A DNA stretch of 64,000 bases from Thermosipho melanesiensis BI429 (lineage in GTDB: Bacteria; Thermotogota; Thermotogae; Thermotogales; Fervidobacteriaceae), in assembly GCF_000016905.1 (NCBI RefSeq), contig NC_009616.1, positions 620,001 through 684,000 on the forward strand, read 5' to 3'. A program made the position numbers and the translations under genes. Below the pieces are notes generated by a model, which was given only the letters and a program-made list of their open reading frames with translations, was not told where the DNA came from and ran no database searches. This document shows positions 32,390 to 38,798 of this stretch, one piece after another (position 1 is the first letter of the stretch; each line of letters begins with the position of its first letter).

Positions 32390-32850
32390 AAAATTTTTCA
32401 ACCTCGTTTTTTGTAACTGCTAACGCCGCCGCTTCCGTAGCAAACTTCAAAGAAAATTCAATATCAAACTTCTCATCTAGAGCAACAGAAAACACTCCAT
32501 TAAACACTCCACAAGCTGCATTAGTGTCAACTGCTCTAACCTTGAAAGCTGGTATTTTTATTTTGACATTTTCATCGAAATAAAAGCCAAACCATTGCTA
32601 TCATTAACTATCACATAGTCCTTAACACTCAACTTACCATACTGTTCTCTTAAAAATTGCCCGTAAGAATCATTTTCGATACACGTTGAATTATTATTTG
32701 AAAGTTTCACTACAGCTTGATTTGAACATTTTCAACCAGGAAAAAACTCTAATTTCAGTGCTTTTTGAGTTTCGCCAGGCAATGTGAATCTTTCAACTGT
32801 CGATACCGCATCCATATCTGAACTTCCAACTATAGCAATCACTTTACCAT
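32388..32850 (-). pseudogene. Ribokinase (PfkB-family) remnant
   Basis: Translation of the minus strand in pieces gives KVIAIVGSSDMDAV and ERFTLPGETQKAL, then EFFPG-stop-KCSNQAV where a ribokinase has FFPGGKGANQAV, then QFLREQYGKL and YVIVNDSNGLAF. After a gap it gives KVRAVDTNAACGVFNGVF, where the catalytic GAGD motif is lost, and EAAALAVTKNEVEKF before the stop. It has in-frame stops and a missing centre, about 460 bases compared with about 900 for an intact gene. This is inferred from motif similarity, not a search. It follows a LacI-family remnant. Confidence 0.75.
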
Positions 32851-33345: not shown

Positions 33346-33819
33346 ATGTTCAAAAAACTAGGTATTATTTTATTAAGTGTATTTGTTTTATCCGGCTTGT
33401 TTGCTTTTGGCTATAGGCAAATAAATACTACATATCCTATGTATCGTAACTTACCTGAAAATTCTACTATCTCTGAAATTTCTTTATCTGGAATTGTAAA
33501 AGAAATCAAAGCTGAAATAGGAGAAGGAGTTAGACTAATTATTGAAGTAGATGGTAAAGAATATACAGTACATGCAGGCCCCATATGGCTTTACAAAAAC
33601 TTAAAAACAAATGACGAAATACAACTAGAGGGTAGACTTGTTAGTACCGAAAACGAAGAATTCATTGTAGCAACAAAAATTATTTCAAATGGCACAGAAC
33701 TTGTGCTAAGGAAAGATCAGAAACCTGTATCTTCACAAACCAATAAAAGAAACAATAATAAAGGAAATAATAACAGAAGAAACAATAAATCTATGGGCAG
33801 AAGAAATAACAGACGGTAA
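33346..33819 (+). CDS. Secreted OB-fold protein with Asn/Arg-rich tail (unknown function)
   Basis: The 157-residue protein begins with a signal peptide (MFKKLGIILLSVFVLSGLFA), then about 95 residues of beta-rich sequence that reads like a small OB fold: SEISLSGIVKEIKAEIGEGV, RLIIEVDGKEYTVHAG, NDEIQLEGRLVSTENEEF. The last 35 residues are basic and Asn/Arg-rich (NKRNNNKGNNNRRNN), which could bind nucleic acid or cell-wall polymers. The ATG at 33346 follows AGGAGGTG. It is alone on the plus strand with its own terminator (33820-33856). I do not recognise a named family; the OB-fold call is a judgement from pattern. Confidence 0.65.
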   Translation: MFKKLGIILLSVFVLSGLFAFGYRQINTTYPMYRNLPENSTISEISLSGIVKEIKAEIGEGVRLIIEVDGKEYTVHAGPIWLYKNLKTNDEIQLEGRLVSTENEEFIVATKIISNGTELVLRKDQKPVSSQTNKRNNNKGNNNRRNNKSMGRRNNRR

Positions 33820-33856
33820 AAAACTAGGCTTCGGAACATTCCGAAGCCTAGTTTTA
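33820..33856. terminator. Long bidirectional terminator hairpin
   Basis: A stem of about 16 base pairs (AAACTAGGCTTCGGAA with its complement) directly follows the stop of the OB-fold gene. It serves that gene and the convergent barrel gene, whose stop lies in its last bases. Confidence 0.9.
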
Positions 33857-34749
33857 AAATAATACTTCTCCAAAAATATCAACGAATATAGAGGACAACT
33901 CATTTCTTATTTTCAAACCTAAATTATAGTCTTCCTCATATTGAGCAAATCCTAAAACCCACTTGCTCAGTATTCTGGTTTGTTCAAATTCTCCAAAAAC
34001 TTTATACGTCTCCCAAAAAGGCAATTGTACACCTAATTTATAATTACCATTTTCAAAGCTATACATTCCATTCATTTCATAATCAAAAATTGAAATATTC
34101 ACATCAATATTTCTCAAATAGTATATAATTTTCAGATTCCCATCTCCAAATACTGCATCAAAATAAATAATTGGATCAAAATCTTCCAAAAATATTCCTC
34201 CTATTAATCTCATATCAACAAAGCCACCGCTTAAATTGTAACCTGTTAAAATAGAATCACTTGCATTAAAATATCTATTTCCATACACCAATTCAAAATT
34301 GCCAATTTTTGCTCCTGCAAGAAAAGGTAGAGAATTACCAGCAACACCTAAGTCTAAAAACACTGTATCATTGTAACTTACCAATACACCTTCAGAAATA
34401 CCTTCTATTGGAAAATCAATATATGATTTGTAGCGTGCATTAAATTTAAATCTATACAAATTAAATTCCAGATTGGCATAATCTATATTTGCACCAGAAA
34501 ATCTCAAACCAAATTCTATTTCATCTGAGGGCGTGTATACAAATTTCAGAAAATTTGACAAACCTTGACCTATCAATAAACTAGAAGAATCGTATTTGTA
34601 AGTCATTACAAAAGAAAATTCTCCTGAAATTTCTACTCCTTCGCTAGTTTCTTCTTTGGGTTTCTTTATTATTAATTCCCTTCTTCTTCAATCAACTCAA
34701 AAACAGAATTTTTCCCACCATATCCATCAGGAACATTGGAACTCGTTCC
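33854..34749 (-). pseudogene. Outer-membrane beta-barrel-like protein, 5'-truncated and frameshifted
   Basis: The C-terminal 250 residues (from 34606) alternate hydrophobic and polar residues with many aromatic belts and end in FVDIFGEVLF, a C-terminal phenylalanine typical of outer-membrane barrels. Upstream, an in-frame part (NVPDGYGGKNSVFELIEEEG) is joined only after a frame change at 34678-34680, where a run of G seems one base short. It then continues ELIIKKPKEETSEGVEISGE. No start codon or signal peptide precedes it: the frame runs into the terminator of tRNA-Arg. The front of the gene is therefore missing. Family unknown. Confidence 0.6.
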
Positions 34750-34765
34750 ATAAAAAATAAAAAAT

Positions 34766-34787
34766 AAAGAGGCTGAAAAGCCTCTTT
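34766..34787 (-). terminator. Terminator after tRNA-Arg
   Basis: AAAGAGGCT and AGCCTCTTT pair around GAAA, followed on the minus strand by a long T-rich run. It ends the tRNA-Ser/tRNA-Arg transcript. Confidence 0.88.
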
Positions 34788-34790
34788 GTT

Positions 34791-34867
34791 TGGCGTGCCC
34801 GGGGAGATTCGAACTCCCAACCTTCAGATCCGCAGTCTGACGCTCTATCCAATTGAGCTACGGGCAC
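34791..34867 (-). tRNA. tRNA-Arg (GCG)
   Basis: Minus-strand cloverleaf starting GTGCCCGTAGCTCAATTGG, anticodon loop CTGCGGA (GCG), T-loop TTCGAAT and encoded CCA. Bacteria usually use ACG in this position, so GCG is a minority choice. Confidence 0.9.
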
Positions 34868-34880
34868 ATAATTCAAAAAT

Positions 34881-34897
34881 GGGGGAATAAATCCCCC
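34881..34897 (-). other. Short hairpin between the two tRNA genes
   Basis: GGGGG and CCCCC pair around a seven-base loop, with ATTTTTG after it on the minus strand. It may be a processing signal or weak terminator. Confidence 0.45.
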
Positions 34898-34903
34898 TAA
34901 ATC

Positions 34904-34993
<90 letters not shown>

Positions 34994-35010
34994 GAAATAT
35001 TACGTATAAA

Positions 35011-35039
35011 ATTTTAACGTAAAAACGAACAAATGTCAA
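35011..35039 (-). promoter_or_regulatory. tRNA-Ser/Arg promoter
   Basis: On the minus strand TTGACA (35034-35039) and TAAAAT (35011-35016) are 17 bases apart, about 18 bases before the tRNA-Ser gene. Confidence 0.82.
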
Positions 35040-35076
35040 GAAAATTGTGGGATTTTCAAAAATACTTTTTTGCATT

Positions 35077-35810
35077 CTAAGGTAAAACAATTTCGTTTGG
35101 ACTTCTTAACAAAATAATTGGCTTTTCATCATCCAACCAAAGCTCTCCATAAAACTTCACCGTTTTACCTTTTAATTTATTTAAATCATAATTTTTAAAA
35201 AAATAATAAAACTCTTCTTCTCTTATTTTTATAGTAAACCAATCAGAATTTATATACCACATACCACCACTTTTGTATACACTACTTACTGTTCCTTTCA
35301 AAAAGACAATCTTACCTACATATTCTCTCGAAAAACTAGTTAAAACAGGTGCGGTATTCCACTTTGAAAAAATCCCTTTTTTATGGCCAAAAGCATATTT
35401 ATACGCTTCAACTATTCGAAAAGTCAATTCTGAATCTACATTTTCAAAATATATTAATGGTCTTGCAAGTCCTTCTTTTAATACTTCTTCTTCATAAAAA
35501 ACTGTTCCACTAGCAGATTTTCCAAACACATACGCAAGTGTTCTACCATAACTATCTTTTCCTGCTTTTTTCAAATAAACTTCATATTTTCTCACGAAGT
35601 TTTCCAAAAAATTTTTGCCTCTTCCCCAAACTCACCAATTGGTTTACTCCCACTATGAATTTCCGGAGTATCTATACCAACAATTCTCACTTTTTCTTCG
35701 TTTGCCGTATAAAACGTATCACCATCTATTACAGTTGTTACAATTTCTAAATTTACACAGGATGTAAGTAATAAAACAAAAGCAAAGAATAATACAAAAA
35801 GTTTTTTCAC
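35077..35810 (-). pseudogene. Staphylococcal-nuclease-like lipoprotein with OB-fold tail, frameshifted
   Basis: The first frame (35810-35592) has a lipoprotein signal (FVLLLTSC) and the nuclease start VIDGDTFYTANEEKVRIVGI then DTPEIH, with the catalytic DGDT and the first arginine. The second frame (35607-35077) continues ENFVRKYEVYLKKAGKDSYG then RTLAYVF, the downstream SNase core. It ends with a probable OB fold (GKIVFLKGTVSSVYK through GKTVKFYGELWL). Joining needs one extra T in an A-then-T homopolymer (35606-35616). It may be a real lesion, a slippage-expressed gene or a sequence error. It would degrade extracytoplasmic nucleic acid. The barrel/OB gene lies just upstream on the same strand. 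Confidence 0.7.
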
Positions 35811-35827
35811 ACTATAGCCTCCTTATA

Positions 35828-35851
35828 AAAGCTCCGCAAAAGCGGTGCTTT
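35828..35851 (-). terminator. Hairpin between the barrel/OB gene and the nuclease gene
   Basis: AAAGC-CCGC pairs with GCGG-GCTTT around an AAAA loop with one internal mismatch, followed by TTTTAT on the minus strand and then the nuclease gene's binding site (AAGGAGG). It looks like a partial terminator inside an operon. Confidence 0.55.
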
Positions 35852-35854
35852 AAA

Positions 35855-37438
35855 TTATTGAATTATGATAATATCCTCTTGATATCTTGGTAAAATTTCA
35901 TATTCACCTTTATAAACTGTTAACATTCCTTGAACCTTAACTTTTTTCCCTACCTCAACTTCTGAAATATCTATATTTGTTCCCTTTTTCAAGTAAATCT
36001 TTATCAAAAATTCCCTTGTATCTACAATGAAATCAAATTTCCTTTTTTCCTTTACAACGCCTTCAACATAAACAAAACTAGATATAAAGGTTTTTGACAA
36101 ACTCGTCAAAACATCAGGTCTTGGCGTTTTTCTACCCACTTTTTCAACATTTTTTGCAACAATTTCAATTATACCATTCCACAATTTACTTCTTCCGTTT
36201 ACTACTACAACATCACCAACTTCTAAATTTTCCATTAAAGAAGGAGCATATATCATCAAACCTGCTGTTTCGTCTTGAATATAAAAGCTTCCTTTACTAA
36301 GTAAATCTTTTGGAGAAGCGATAATACCCTTTACAACATACGTTTTTCCTTCTTCTCCCAAAATTACATCCATAACAGTATTATATATTTCCGCGGATTC
36401 CTTGTTTTTCTCTACAACAATAGGAGAAATTTCTTTTTTCTTTGAGCCAAATAAAGATATCCTATCAAATTCAAGTGTATAAAAATAATTCAACTCAACT
36501 GCTATTTTTTGCTCTCCTGAAATATTTGCAATTAAATCTCCATTACCTATCTTAAATACAAAATCCTTAAACGATACTTTTAAACCATATAAAGGTAAAT
36601 AACTTGGATTAGATGCCCAAACACTGTTATATCTCAAAAATAATCCGAAATTGTAATCATTCAAAGTGTAATCTATATCCATATAATATGCCCACGCATC
36701 TGATGAAAATGCAACACTATTGGGATCACCATCTAAATAATCCGCATCGTATTTGTTAGCACCAAGTTTTAAATACTGAGTACTAAAAGCAAAATCACCA
36801 AAATTAACCCTTGCTCCTATTAAATATGAAAAATTGGCAATATCCGTCGTCTTTGCAGATAATGCTCCCCAAGCAAATATCGAAAATTTACCAAAATCAA
36901 TAGATTTAGTCAAATCAAATGATACTTGATTATATTTTGTTTCATAATACCCCCCAAAATTGAACCCAAACAATTCAATTTGTAAATACCCTGCAAAATT
37001 ATTATAGTCAATATCATATGCTACTCCTAAAGAAAATTTATCGCCTTTTATATCCATTCCTACTCCATAATAGTCAAATTTTAATCCACCTAATCTTAAT
37101 CCTTCAAATTTCTCTGTTTGAGTTTTTTTCAACCTTGCCTTTAAAATATCCATTTTAAAATTGACACCAAAAATATCAAATTTTGTTTCAAAATAATAAT
37201 ATCTTGGTTTAAAAATCGAATTCATTCCCAAATCAAAAGAATCATGTGTTAACTTCAAATAATCTGTCACTTTGAACGATAAAAAATCAAAAGGCTGATA
37301 AGTTACATAAAGTATTGGAAAATAATCAAGTGTACCATCATCTACTCCTATTGTTGTTAAATTTAATACCGACAAAGAAAAGTTTGAAAATGACAAAATG
37401 GAAAATAATAAAACAATGAAGATAACTATTTTTCTCAT
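35855..37438 (-). CDS. Beta-barrel-like envelope protein with C-terminal YhcR-type OB folds
   Basis: The 527-residue protein starts with a signal peptide (MRKIVIFIVLLFSILSFS). Residues ~20-335 are alternating, aromatic-rich strands typical of an outer-membrane barrel (DYYGVGMDIKGDKFSLGVAY, SYLIGARVNFGDFAFSTQYL). Residues ~355-527 contain two OB-like modules: KTYVVKGIIASPKDLL, SFYIQDETAGLMIYAP, GDVVVVNGRSKLWNG, then VYVEGVVKEKRKFDF and GKKVKVQGMLTVYKGEYEIL. The OB part resembles that of secreted YhcR-type nucleases. It is intact, between an upstream OB-fold lipoprotein gene and a downstream nuclease gene on the same strand. I infer a nucleic-acid handling role in the envelope; function is unproven. 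Confidence 0.7.
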   Translation of the reverse strand: MRKIVIFIVLLFSILSFSNFSLSVLNLTTIGVDDGTLDYFPILYVTYQPFDFLSFKVTDYLKLTHDSFDLGMNSIFKPRYYYFETKFDIFGVNFKMDILKARLKKTQTEKFEGLRLGGLKFDYYGVGMDIKGDKFSLGVAYDIDYNNFAGYLQIELFGFNFGGYYETKYNQVSFDLTKSIDFGKFSIFAWGALSAKTTDIANFSYLIGARVNFGDFAFSTQYLKLGANKYDADYLDGDPNSVAFSSDAWAYYMDIDYTLNDYNFGLFLRYNSVWASNPSYLPLYGLKVSFKDFVFKIGNGDLIANISGEQKIAVELNYFYTLEFDRISLFGSKKKEISPIVVEKNKESAEIYNTVMDVILGEEGKTYVVKGIIASPKDLLSKGSFYIQDETAGLMIYAPSLMENLEVGDVVVVNGRSKLWNGIIEIVAKNVEKVGRKTPRPDVLTSLSKTFISSFVYVEGVVKEKRKFDFIVDTREFLIKIYLKKGTNIDISEVEVGKKVKVQGMLTVYKGEYEILPRYQEDIIIIQ

Positions 37439-37459
37439 ATATTCACCTCCGATAAAAAT

Positions 37460-37475
37460 AGGGCCTTTCGGCCCT
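37460..37475 (-). terminator. Hairpin between the lipoprotein gene and the barrel/OB gene
   Basis: AGGGCC and GGCCCT pair around TTTC. On the minus strand ATTTTTATCGGAGGTG follows, including the next ribosome binding site. The arrangement repeats that of malE-malF. Confidence 0.65.
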
Positions 37476-37497
37476 TGTAGTATTTAATTTCTTTTAA

Positions 37498-38187
37498 CTA
37501 AAATTCAACATTCGAAGCATCAAAAATAAACAATTCCCATTTGTCGTAAAAACCTTTCAGAAAACCTGTTAAAGTAGCTGGCTTATCTATTATTGTTTCT
37601 GTTGCCAGTCCTGAAGGTATATAAACATGCAATGTTGCTTCTCCTGTTTCTATTGGATATTTTATCTCAAAATCTTTAATCGAATCTTCTTTCATATAAT
37701 TTAACGTTCCATTTACAGTAACAAAATTAAAGTTCCATTTTGCAAAAGCCTCAACATCAGTTGTCGTTCCACTTTTTAACAACCAATTATTATCCAACTT
37801 AACGTTTAAAAGAACTGGTGAAGGATTATCTCCCGTTGTTGTGGAAACAAGCGTTGGATTTTCTAATTGCAAGTTATCGTAATAATAATCCAGCGTTCCT
37901 GTAACAGTTATTTTATCGCCTACTTCCACAGTTGCTGGAAAATCTCTATTGTATATATCTAATCCCGTTACACCATCAAAAATAACTACTTCATCACTAT
38001 CTTTGTAAATAACTACCCCTGTGACTGATGCATCTGTAGTACCGCTAAAATAACCTAATTTTGCATTGTAAATACTTGATGTTTCACCACTTCCACCATT
38101 ATTATCAGGTGGTAAAAACTACATACATCCAGAAAAAACAAAAAATAAAAGTGCTATTCCTAAAAAAATTGCTAAATATTTTTTCAT
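37498..38187 (-). pseudogene. OB-fold lipoprotein with a premature UAG stop
   Basis: From ATG 38187 the frame gives a lipoprotein signal MKKYLAIFLGIALLFFVFSG then Cys-21 and Met-22, followed by TAG at 38119-38121. After the stop the same frame stays open for 206 codons: FLPPDNNGGSGETSSIYNAK, VTGVVIYKDSDEVVIFDGVT, EVGDKITVTGTLDYYYDNLQ. This is a YhcR-like OB fold followed by a further beta-rich part. A GTG at 37929 could restart translation but without a signal. The stop is the only visible lesion, so it may be recent, read through, or a base error. It heads a line of genes including the barrel/OB and nuclease genes. Confidence 0.75.
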
Positions 38188-38246
38188 AATATCTCTTTCT
38201 TTTTAAGATATTAGCAATAGTATTATATAACACCATACAAGATTTT

Positions 38247-38798
38247 TCAAAAAATATTCCATAAATTTTCCTTACTTGTTGAAACGGCAATTGCACCCGC
38301 TGCTAAAATTTTTTTCACTTGATTTTCAGTACTTACAAGTCCTCCGGAAATAATGGGTTGTTCTACACTCTGCTTTATAAACCTTATCATATCTGGTATA
38401 AGGCCAGGTAAAACTTCCACAAAATTAGCTTTATGCTTTTTTATCTGCTGAATACCCGTTTCAACAGCTTTTGAGTCTATTAAAAAAATCCTTTGAACTG
38501 TCATTAATCCTATTCTGTTTGCAAAAACAATAAGATTGGATCTTGTTGTGATTATTCCATCTGCGCATACAAATTCTTTTACAAGCTTTACACTTGCTTC
38601 ATCCCTTCCCAGACCATTAATAAGGTCAATATGTACAAAAACTTTTTTTCCATTTTCCTTTAACTTTTGCGTTGCATTTTGTGTATTGAATATATCTCCC
38701 TCTAGTAAAAAAACCGAAGACACGGGAATTTGTACAATTTTTTCAACAAATTTTAAATCTCTTATTGCAGGCACTATAGGATATACAAATGGATGCAC
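38247..38798 (-). CDS. glpP: Glycerol-3-phosphate-responsive antiterminator GlpP
   Basis: GlpP binds mRNA leaders when glycerol 3-phosphate is present and prevents termination of glp transcripts. The product has VHIDLINGLGRDEASVKLVK, CADGIITTRSNLI and SGGLVSTENQVKKILAAGA, as expected for the TIM-barrel GlpP family. The start is set at GTG 38798, about eight bases after GGAG; an upstream GTG at 38807 would have no spacing. The protein is then 183 residues. It is the last gene of the glp operon and probably controls that operon through a leader hairpin (43320-43352). Confidence 0.9.
   Translation of the reverse strand: MHPFVYPIVPAIRDLKFVEKIVQIPVSSVFLLEGDIFNTQNATQKLKENGKKVFVHIDLINGLGRDEASVKLVKEFVCADGIITTRSNLIVFANRIGLMTVQRIFLIDSKAVETGIQQIKKHKANFVEVLPGLIPDMIRFIKQSVEQPIISGGLVSTENQVKKILAAGAIAVSTSKENLWNIF

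What the first reader, a model, noticed from the sequence alone, without database searches (positions are those of the whole stretch)
33346..38187. Cluster of envelope OB-fold proteins, beta-barrels and a secreted nuclease
Five neighbouring genes look exported or envelope-bound. They are a secreted OB-fold protein with an Asn/Arg-rich tail, a beta-barrel-like fragment, an SNase-like lipoprotein with an OB tail, a barrel joined to two YhcR-type OB modules, and an OB-fold lipoprotein. Four are on the minus strand. OB folds recur in four of them, an unusual density outside DNA replication. I infer a system that captures and cuts extracytoplasmic nucleic acid. Three members carry lesions, so it may be decaying here and intact in relatives.
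Basis: partly seen in the sequence, partly recalled or inferred. Interest (0 to 1): 0.75.

Follow-up and report, generated by a model that had tools for sequence, protein, structure and literature searches.

The report
Thermotogota envelope nucleic-acid capture operon
A three-gene operon found across heat-loving Thermotogota bacteria pairs an outer-membrane channel and a lipoprotein, both carrying nucleic-acid-type binding domains, with a lipid-anchored nuclease, so it probably lets cells catch and digest DNA or RNA from outside; the copy in this genome looks damaged.

Summary
The core of the finding is real. On the minus strand, three adjacent genes form a conserved unit: E (tandem-OB lipoprotein, 37498-38187), D (OprD-like outer-membrane barrel plus two OB domains, 35855-37438) and C (staphylococcal-nuclease lipoprotein with an OB tail, 35077-35810). 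Profile comparison shows their OB modules are homologous. In 24 of 33 Thermotogota genomes with the barrel, an SNase gene lies within 4 kb, across four families and in changing gene orders; 26 have a neighbouring OB protein. In four Fervidobacterium-type genomes an alkaline phosphatase follows. I read the unit as a nucleic-acid scavenging locus (capture, import, cut). That function is inferred, not shown. Two of the five listed genes do not belong: A (33346-33819) is unlinked in relatives, and B (33854-34606) is the barrel end of a CBM48-barrel fusion from a second, glycan-type module otherwise deleted here. The lesions are in the sequence: a stop in E, a frameshift in C, a truncated B. The frameshift lies in a homopolymer run of a 454/Sanger genome (T. 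melanesiensis BI429), so it may be a sequencing error.

The parts
37498..38187 (-). E: lipoprotein (MKKYLAIFLGIALLFFVFSGC lipobox) with two OB domains; in-frame TAG at about 38119-38121 directly after the lipobox
   Evidence: hhalign 98.2% to D's OB pair; AF2 model of an intact relative nearest tandem-OB DNA binders
35855..37438 (-). D: exported outer-membrane barrel fused to two C-terminal OB domains, 527 aa, intact
   Evidence: pN/pS 0.27 against the sister species
36461..37384 (-). Barrel part of D (residues ~19-326), ending in an aromatic beta-signal-like strand ELNYFYTLEF
   Evidence: AF2 strands and confidence; Foldseek OccD2/OprD E 3.2e-9, TM 0.53 by target; C-terminal residues
35858..36391 (-). 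Tandem OB part of D (residues ~350-527), inferred to hang on the periplasmic side of the barrel
   Evidence: PF01336 E 4.9e-7 and PF18942 (DUF5689) E 1.1e-4, the latter below its cut-off; AF2 strands; side of membrane inferred from general barrel topology
35077..35810 (-). C: staphylococcal-nuclease-type lipoprotein with OB tail; one-base frameshift in a homopolymer run where the two frames overlap (35592-35607)
   Evidence: PF00565 in both halves; intact homologues align across the break; active-site motifs DGDT, R..ID(T)PE and YGR present; tail homologous to D's second OB
33854..34734 (-). B remnant: C-terminal barrel (33854-34606) and a scrap of the third CBM48 domain of a protein that is 631-639 aa in relatives; not part of the E-D-C unit
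34791..34993 (-). tRNA-Arg and tRNA-Ser next to the deletion junction that removed F, G, H and most of B
   Evidence: ARAGORN; synteny with relatives
33346..33819 (+). A: secreted protein, possible OB core, basic Asn/Arg tail; independent of E-D-C
32409..32842 (-). Ribokinase remnant: two fragments (residues 1-97 and 226-283) of a gene intact in a sister species
   Evidence: tblastn; PfkB family in G001
38222..38250 (-). Promoter-like site TTGAAA-17-TATAAT (11 of 12) about 35 bases before the start of E
   Evidence: Consensus scan only

Best explanation
E-D-C is an envelope nucleic-acid scavenging locus of Thermotogota. D forms an OprD-like channel in the outer membrane; because a barrel's ends normally face the periplasm, its OB pair probably sits at the inner mouth. 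E, a lipid-anchored OB pair of the same type, binds nucleic acid and hands it over or retains it. C, a lipid-anchored SNase with an OB tail, cuts it to short oligonucleotides and nucleotides. Phosphatases and nucleotidases (encoded beside it in some relatives) then release phosphate and nucleosides for import. Shown: domain make-up, homology of the OB modules, and conserved gene neighbourhood. Inferred: substrate, side of the membrane, order of steps, and purpose. In this genome E and possibly C are damaged, so the unit may be non-functional here while D is kept.
For: OB modules of E, D and C are homologous. SNase domain and active-site motifs. SNase within 4 kb of the barrel in 24 of 33 genomes in families f1, f5, f9 and f11, with orders E-D-C, D-C-E, E-C-D and divergent C/D-E; with up to 4 SNase-like genes per ~2 Mb genome, chance adjacency would be about 1-2% by my estimate. 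Barrel like substrate-specific OprD/Occ channels. E model nearest nucleic-acid-binding OB proteins. Alkaline phosphatase downstream of the unit in four Fervidobacterium-type genomes (Pfam on three of them); 5'-nucleotidase nearby in G100. SNase and the same OB fused in one protein in G049. Ribose genes (RbsD, ribokinase) near the locus in several Thermosipho. [quoted passage not shown] deleting the two-OB region of ExeM nearly abolishes its nuclease activity (PMC6085458).
Against: No binding, nuclease or transport data. E is acidic in four of five relatives tested (pI 4.3-4.5) and D's OB1 is slightly acidic; D's OB2 is basic. The D model is moderate (pLDDT 73, pTM 0.49). SNase is missing next to the barrel in 9 genomes, including G058, G061, G062 and G063, where the barrel stands alone. 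G041 and G044 keep a strong C homologue without D. The same OB type also occurs in F, beside carbohydrate-like modules, so it need not bind nucleic acid. In the Guaymas study Thermosipho genomes came from lipid cultures and were not listed among the DNA cultures (PMC8630151).
Confidence: 0.58

Rival explanations
1. It is the outer-membrane DNA entry step of natural transformation: D passes DNA, E captures it, C trims it.
For: Riemerella needs a DUF5689 protein and an adjacent predicted barrel for transformation (PMC8459023). Natural transformation is reported in Thermotoga (PMC4029938), and ComEC is present in G000.
Against: ComEC is in 40 of 41 genomes of the order, but no full barrel protein was found in any f2 genome or in most f3 genomes. 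No competence gene was recognised beside the unit in the loci read. A non-specific nuclease plus phosphatases suits digestion better than intact uptake.
Confidence: 0.13
2. It is a glycan or mixed-polymer uptake locus: the OB domains bind carbohydrate, and the nuclease is incidental.
For: The neighbouring second module in Thermosipho relatives carries CBM48 domains and a barrel, and its F protein combines OB with carbohydrate-like modules. An alpha-amylase gene lies near the unit in G050.
Against: The second module is not seen beside E-D-C in Fervidobacterium, f5 or f11, whereas the SNase stays. D's OB matches the nucleic-acid OB family and E's fold matches DNA binders.
Confidence: 0.12
3. It is a general porin-plus-lipoprotein envelope unit for small solutes or phosphate; the OB domains tether the barrel to other envelope parts.
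For: The barrel resembles general and specific porins. It stands alone in G058, G061, G062 and G063, and lacks OB in f5 and f9. E is acidic.
Against: It does not explain the repeated neighbourhood with an SNase that carries the same OB type.
Confidence: 0.12
4. The grouping is accidental: unrelated envelope genes that happen to be neighbours.
For: A and B are indeed unrelated to E-D-C.
Against: E-D-C adjacency recurs in four or more families with shuffled order.
Confidence: 0.03

Closest known systems
Riemerella anatipestifer natural-transformation pair RA0C_RS04920 (DUF5689) and RA0C_RS04915 (predicted barrel), PMC8459023
   Same: DUF5689/OB-type envelope protein encoded next to a predicted outer-membrane barrel, linked to DNA uptake
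   Different: No SNase partner reported; RS04915 carries a carboxypeptidase-like domain rather than a fused OB pair; Bacteroidota; role is transformation
ExeM/NucH extracellular nucleases (Shewanella ExeM) and the Bacillus YhcR-type OB region
   Same: Envelope nuclease that depends on a two-OB region
   Different: Here the OB pairs sit on a barrel and a lipoprotein, and the nuclease is SNase-type, not EEP; only a weak NCBIfam match (0.019)
Staphylococcal thermonuclease family (NucI, EcnA)
   Same: Catalytic domain and motifs
   Different: Lipid anchor plus OB tail, encoded with a channel
OprD/Occ substrate-specific porins
   Same: Predicted barrel fold (Foldseek E 3e-9)
   Different: No Pfam OprD match, 9-14% identity, OB pair fused at the C terminus
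Bacteroidota polysaccharide utilisation loci (SusC/D)
   Same: Logic: binding lipoprotein, outer-membrane channel and degrading enzyme in one operon
   Different: No TonB-dependent barrel, no SusD, different substrate

Membership tests
SNase (PF00565) / thermonuclease | Pfam SNase domain over the curated cut-off | tested here: met
   Both halves of C over 21 bits (26.2 and 22.2); intact relatives to 66.9 bits
SNase (PF00565) / thermonuclease | Catalytic motifs DGDT, R and D-(T)-P-E, YGR | tested here: met
   Nearly invariant in the homologues and aligned with staphylococcal nuclease; in the window they lie on two frames
SNase (PF00565) / thermonuclease | Ca-dependent nuclease activity | not testable with these tools
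   No biochemistry possible
OB-fold nucleic-acid binding domain (PF01336) | Score over the curated cut-off | tested here: met
   D 30.0 vs 27
DUF5689 (PF18942) | Score over the curated cut-off of 28.6 | tested here: inconclusive
   Window D 22.7 (below); related OB proteins L092 34.2 and L102 73.4 (above)
OprD/Occ porin | Sequence family match | tested here: not met
   No Pfam match for the barrel; resemblance is in fold only
ExeM/NucH nuclease | EEP nuclease domain | tested here: not met
   No EEP domain match in E, D or C
SusC/D utilisation locus | TonB-dependent barrel and SusD lipoprotein | tested here: not met
   No Pfam match to either; modelled barrel of about 18 strands
Natural-transformation machinery | Co-distribution with ComEC | tested here: not met
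   ComEC in 40/41 genomes; barrel absent from f2 and most f3 genomes

The most novel reading that the evidence does not exclude
A previously undescribed class of nucleic-acid utilisation locus, independent of TonB: an OprD-like channel with its own periplasmic OB pair draws single-stranded fragments inward while an OB lipoprotein and an OB-tailed SNase, all using the same binding module, capture and cut them. A parallel CBM48 module uses the same design (binding module fused to a barrel plus lipoproteins) for glycans.
Probability: 0.33. Interest if true: 0.75.

Novelty: new variant of a known kind. Interest (0 to 1): 0.55.

Why it matters
Little is known of how molecules cross the outer envelope of Thermotogota. 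A conserved operon joining a channel, a capture lipoprotein and a nuclease through one shared binding module would give these bacteria a defined route to feed on DNA or RNA in hot sediments. It would extend the utilisation-locus idea beyond polysaccharides and TonB. The recurrent damage in several Thermosipho genomes would make loss of such a trait traceable.

Tried and rejected
Search for the barrel-OB protein in viral contigs: none. The global genome scan returned only Thermotogota, but its patterns reach close relatives only. A as a member of the unit: rejected, unlinked in relatives and OB homology to D not supported. B as an OB or nucleic-acid protein: rejected, it is the end of a CBM48 fusion. 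Reading the C frameshift as proof of decay: not accepted, since both halves keep normal constraint (pN/pS about 0.3-0.4) and the genome is 454/Sanger. E in the window is less constrained than E between relatives (pN 0.34-0.38 against 0.14-0.31), which favours true decay. In one search the C comparisons with L026 were out of frame and are ignored. Faster change in the B remnant is no evidence of decay: the barrel part of B changes as fast between intact copies. PDB sequence search with E gave only chance-level matches.

Full report
Setting. The window is G000:C1:620001-684000. The assembly has 1,915,238 bases in one contig, exactly the size given for Thermosipho melanesiensis BI429 (454/Sanger) in PMC6211235.

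The genes. On the minus strand E (37498-38187), D (35855-37438) and C (35077-35810) follow each other with gaps of about 60 and 45 bases. E begins with a signal peptide and lipobox ending SGC, then has an in-frame TAG. D is a 527-residue open gene. C is a nuclease split by a one-base frameshift in a homopolymer run; both halves match Pfam SNase.

Folds. D scores over the Pfam cut-off for OB. Its AlphaFold2 model (pLDDT 73, eight sequences) shows about 18 strands and then two OB-like units. The whole model is nearest to OccD2/OprD porins, Campylobacter MOMP and Veillonella OmpM1. E from an intact relative models as two OB-like units and is nearest to HIN-200 domains on DNA, Teb1 and RPA; the TM-scores over the whole of E are low (0.25-0.3), so the match is to the OB units rather than to their arrangement. 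Profile comparison ties E to D's OB pair (98.2%, E 3e-14) and C's tail to D's second OB (92%, E 6.5e-7). One binding module is therefore shared by all three proteins.

Conservation. E-D-C is intact and adjacent in Thermosipho relatives and in Fervidobacterium sp. UBA5837 (G009 = L027; named), where the flanks differ and glpK is absent. In other genomes of the same genus (L029-L032) E is longer, a second OB-only protein follows C, and then an alkaline phosphatase. In f11 the order is D-C-E (L097), in f5 E-C-D with a barrel that lacks OB (L098, L099, L109), and in f9 the SNase is divergent from barrel and OB lipoprotein (L092, L103, L105-L108, L110). The tally is SNase within 4 kb in 24 of 33 barrel genomes, and an OB protein beside it in 26. 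In G043 the pieces sit at two contig ends (C and the start of E; the end of an OB protein and D), which fits C-E-D. A 708-residue protein in G049 joins SNase, OB and a DUF4350/GIFT-type domain. Exceptions are listed under evidence against.

What does not belong. A has homologues in most of the family but never beside E-D-C; its OB fold is plausible but unproven. B is the last part of a protein that in relatives has three CBM48 domains and a barrel, in a second module F-G-H-B downstream of C. In the window F, G, H and most of B are gone, with two tRNA genes at the junction.

Decay. E carries different in-frame stops here and in G003; in G001 a deletion joins the start of an E-like lipoprotein to the OB part of D, with stops. 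E evolves faster here than between relatives, C does not. The next-door ribokinase is also reduced to fragments. The unit thus appears to be damaged repeatedly in this genus, but the C lesion needs a second strain.

How it may work. A shared OB module on a lipoprotein, a channel and a nuclease suggests capture, passage and cutting of one polymer, and the SNase points to nucleic acid. Because barrel termini normally face the periplasm (general knowledge), D's OB pair is probably on the inside. It could hold entering strands while C degrades them. Phosphatase and nucleotidase neighbours suggest scavenging for phosphate and nucleosides. A role in transformation is possible, since a DUF5689 protein next to a predicted barrel is needed for it in Riemerella (PMC8459023). 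The distribution argues against it: ComEC is nearly universal, the barrel is not. The acidic pI of E is a real weakness of the nucleic-acid reading.

Literature. Ten searches of the open-access library found no description of this unit. That library lacks most subscription journals.

Noticed in passing
L024:762-6527, L026:663-6469, L022:11613-16142: Second envelope module F-G-H-B beside C: lipoproteins with carbohydrate-like modules, a 391-aa barrel-like protein and a barrel with three CBM48 domains. Same design as E-D-C but probably for glycans.
   Followed up: partly
window:32409-32842: Ribokinase reduced to two fragments; a copy is intact in G001 near the same locus. RbsD and an ABC transporter gene lie next to the second module in other Thermosipho.
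   Followed up: partly
L021:9037-9039: In the sister species G003 the E gene has an in-frame TGA at another position, with the rest of the frame under normal constraint; recent loss, error or readthrough is open.
   Followed up: partly
L034:7620-8420: In G001 the signal peptide of an E-like lipoprotein is joined to the OB part of D by a deletion, with stops.
   Followed up: partly
L040:6489-8048 (G000:C1, outside the window): 519-aa exported protein with an OB pair and a GIFT/DUF4350-type domain in the same genome; lipoproteins with a related domain also sit beside the unit in f9.
   Followed up: partly
L102:3699-7970: 1423-aa protein with three DUF5689 stretches, a weak PHP-domain match (below the cut-off) and a GIFT-type domain.
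   Followed up: no
L042 (G006:C4, C5, C6, C8): Equally scoring copies of the A gene on four contigs of one genome, two of them at contig starts, as if carried on a repeated element.
   Followed up: no
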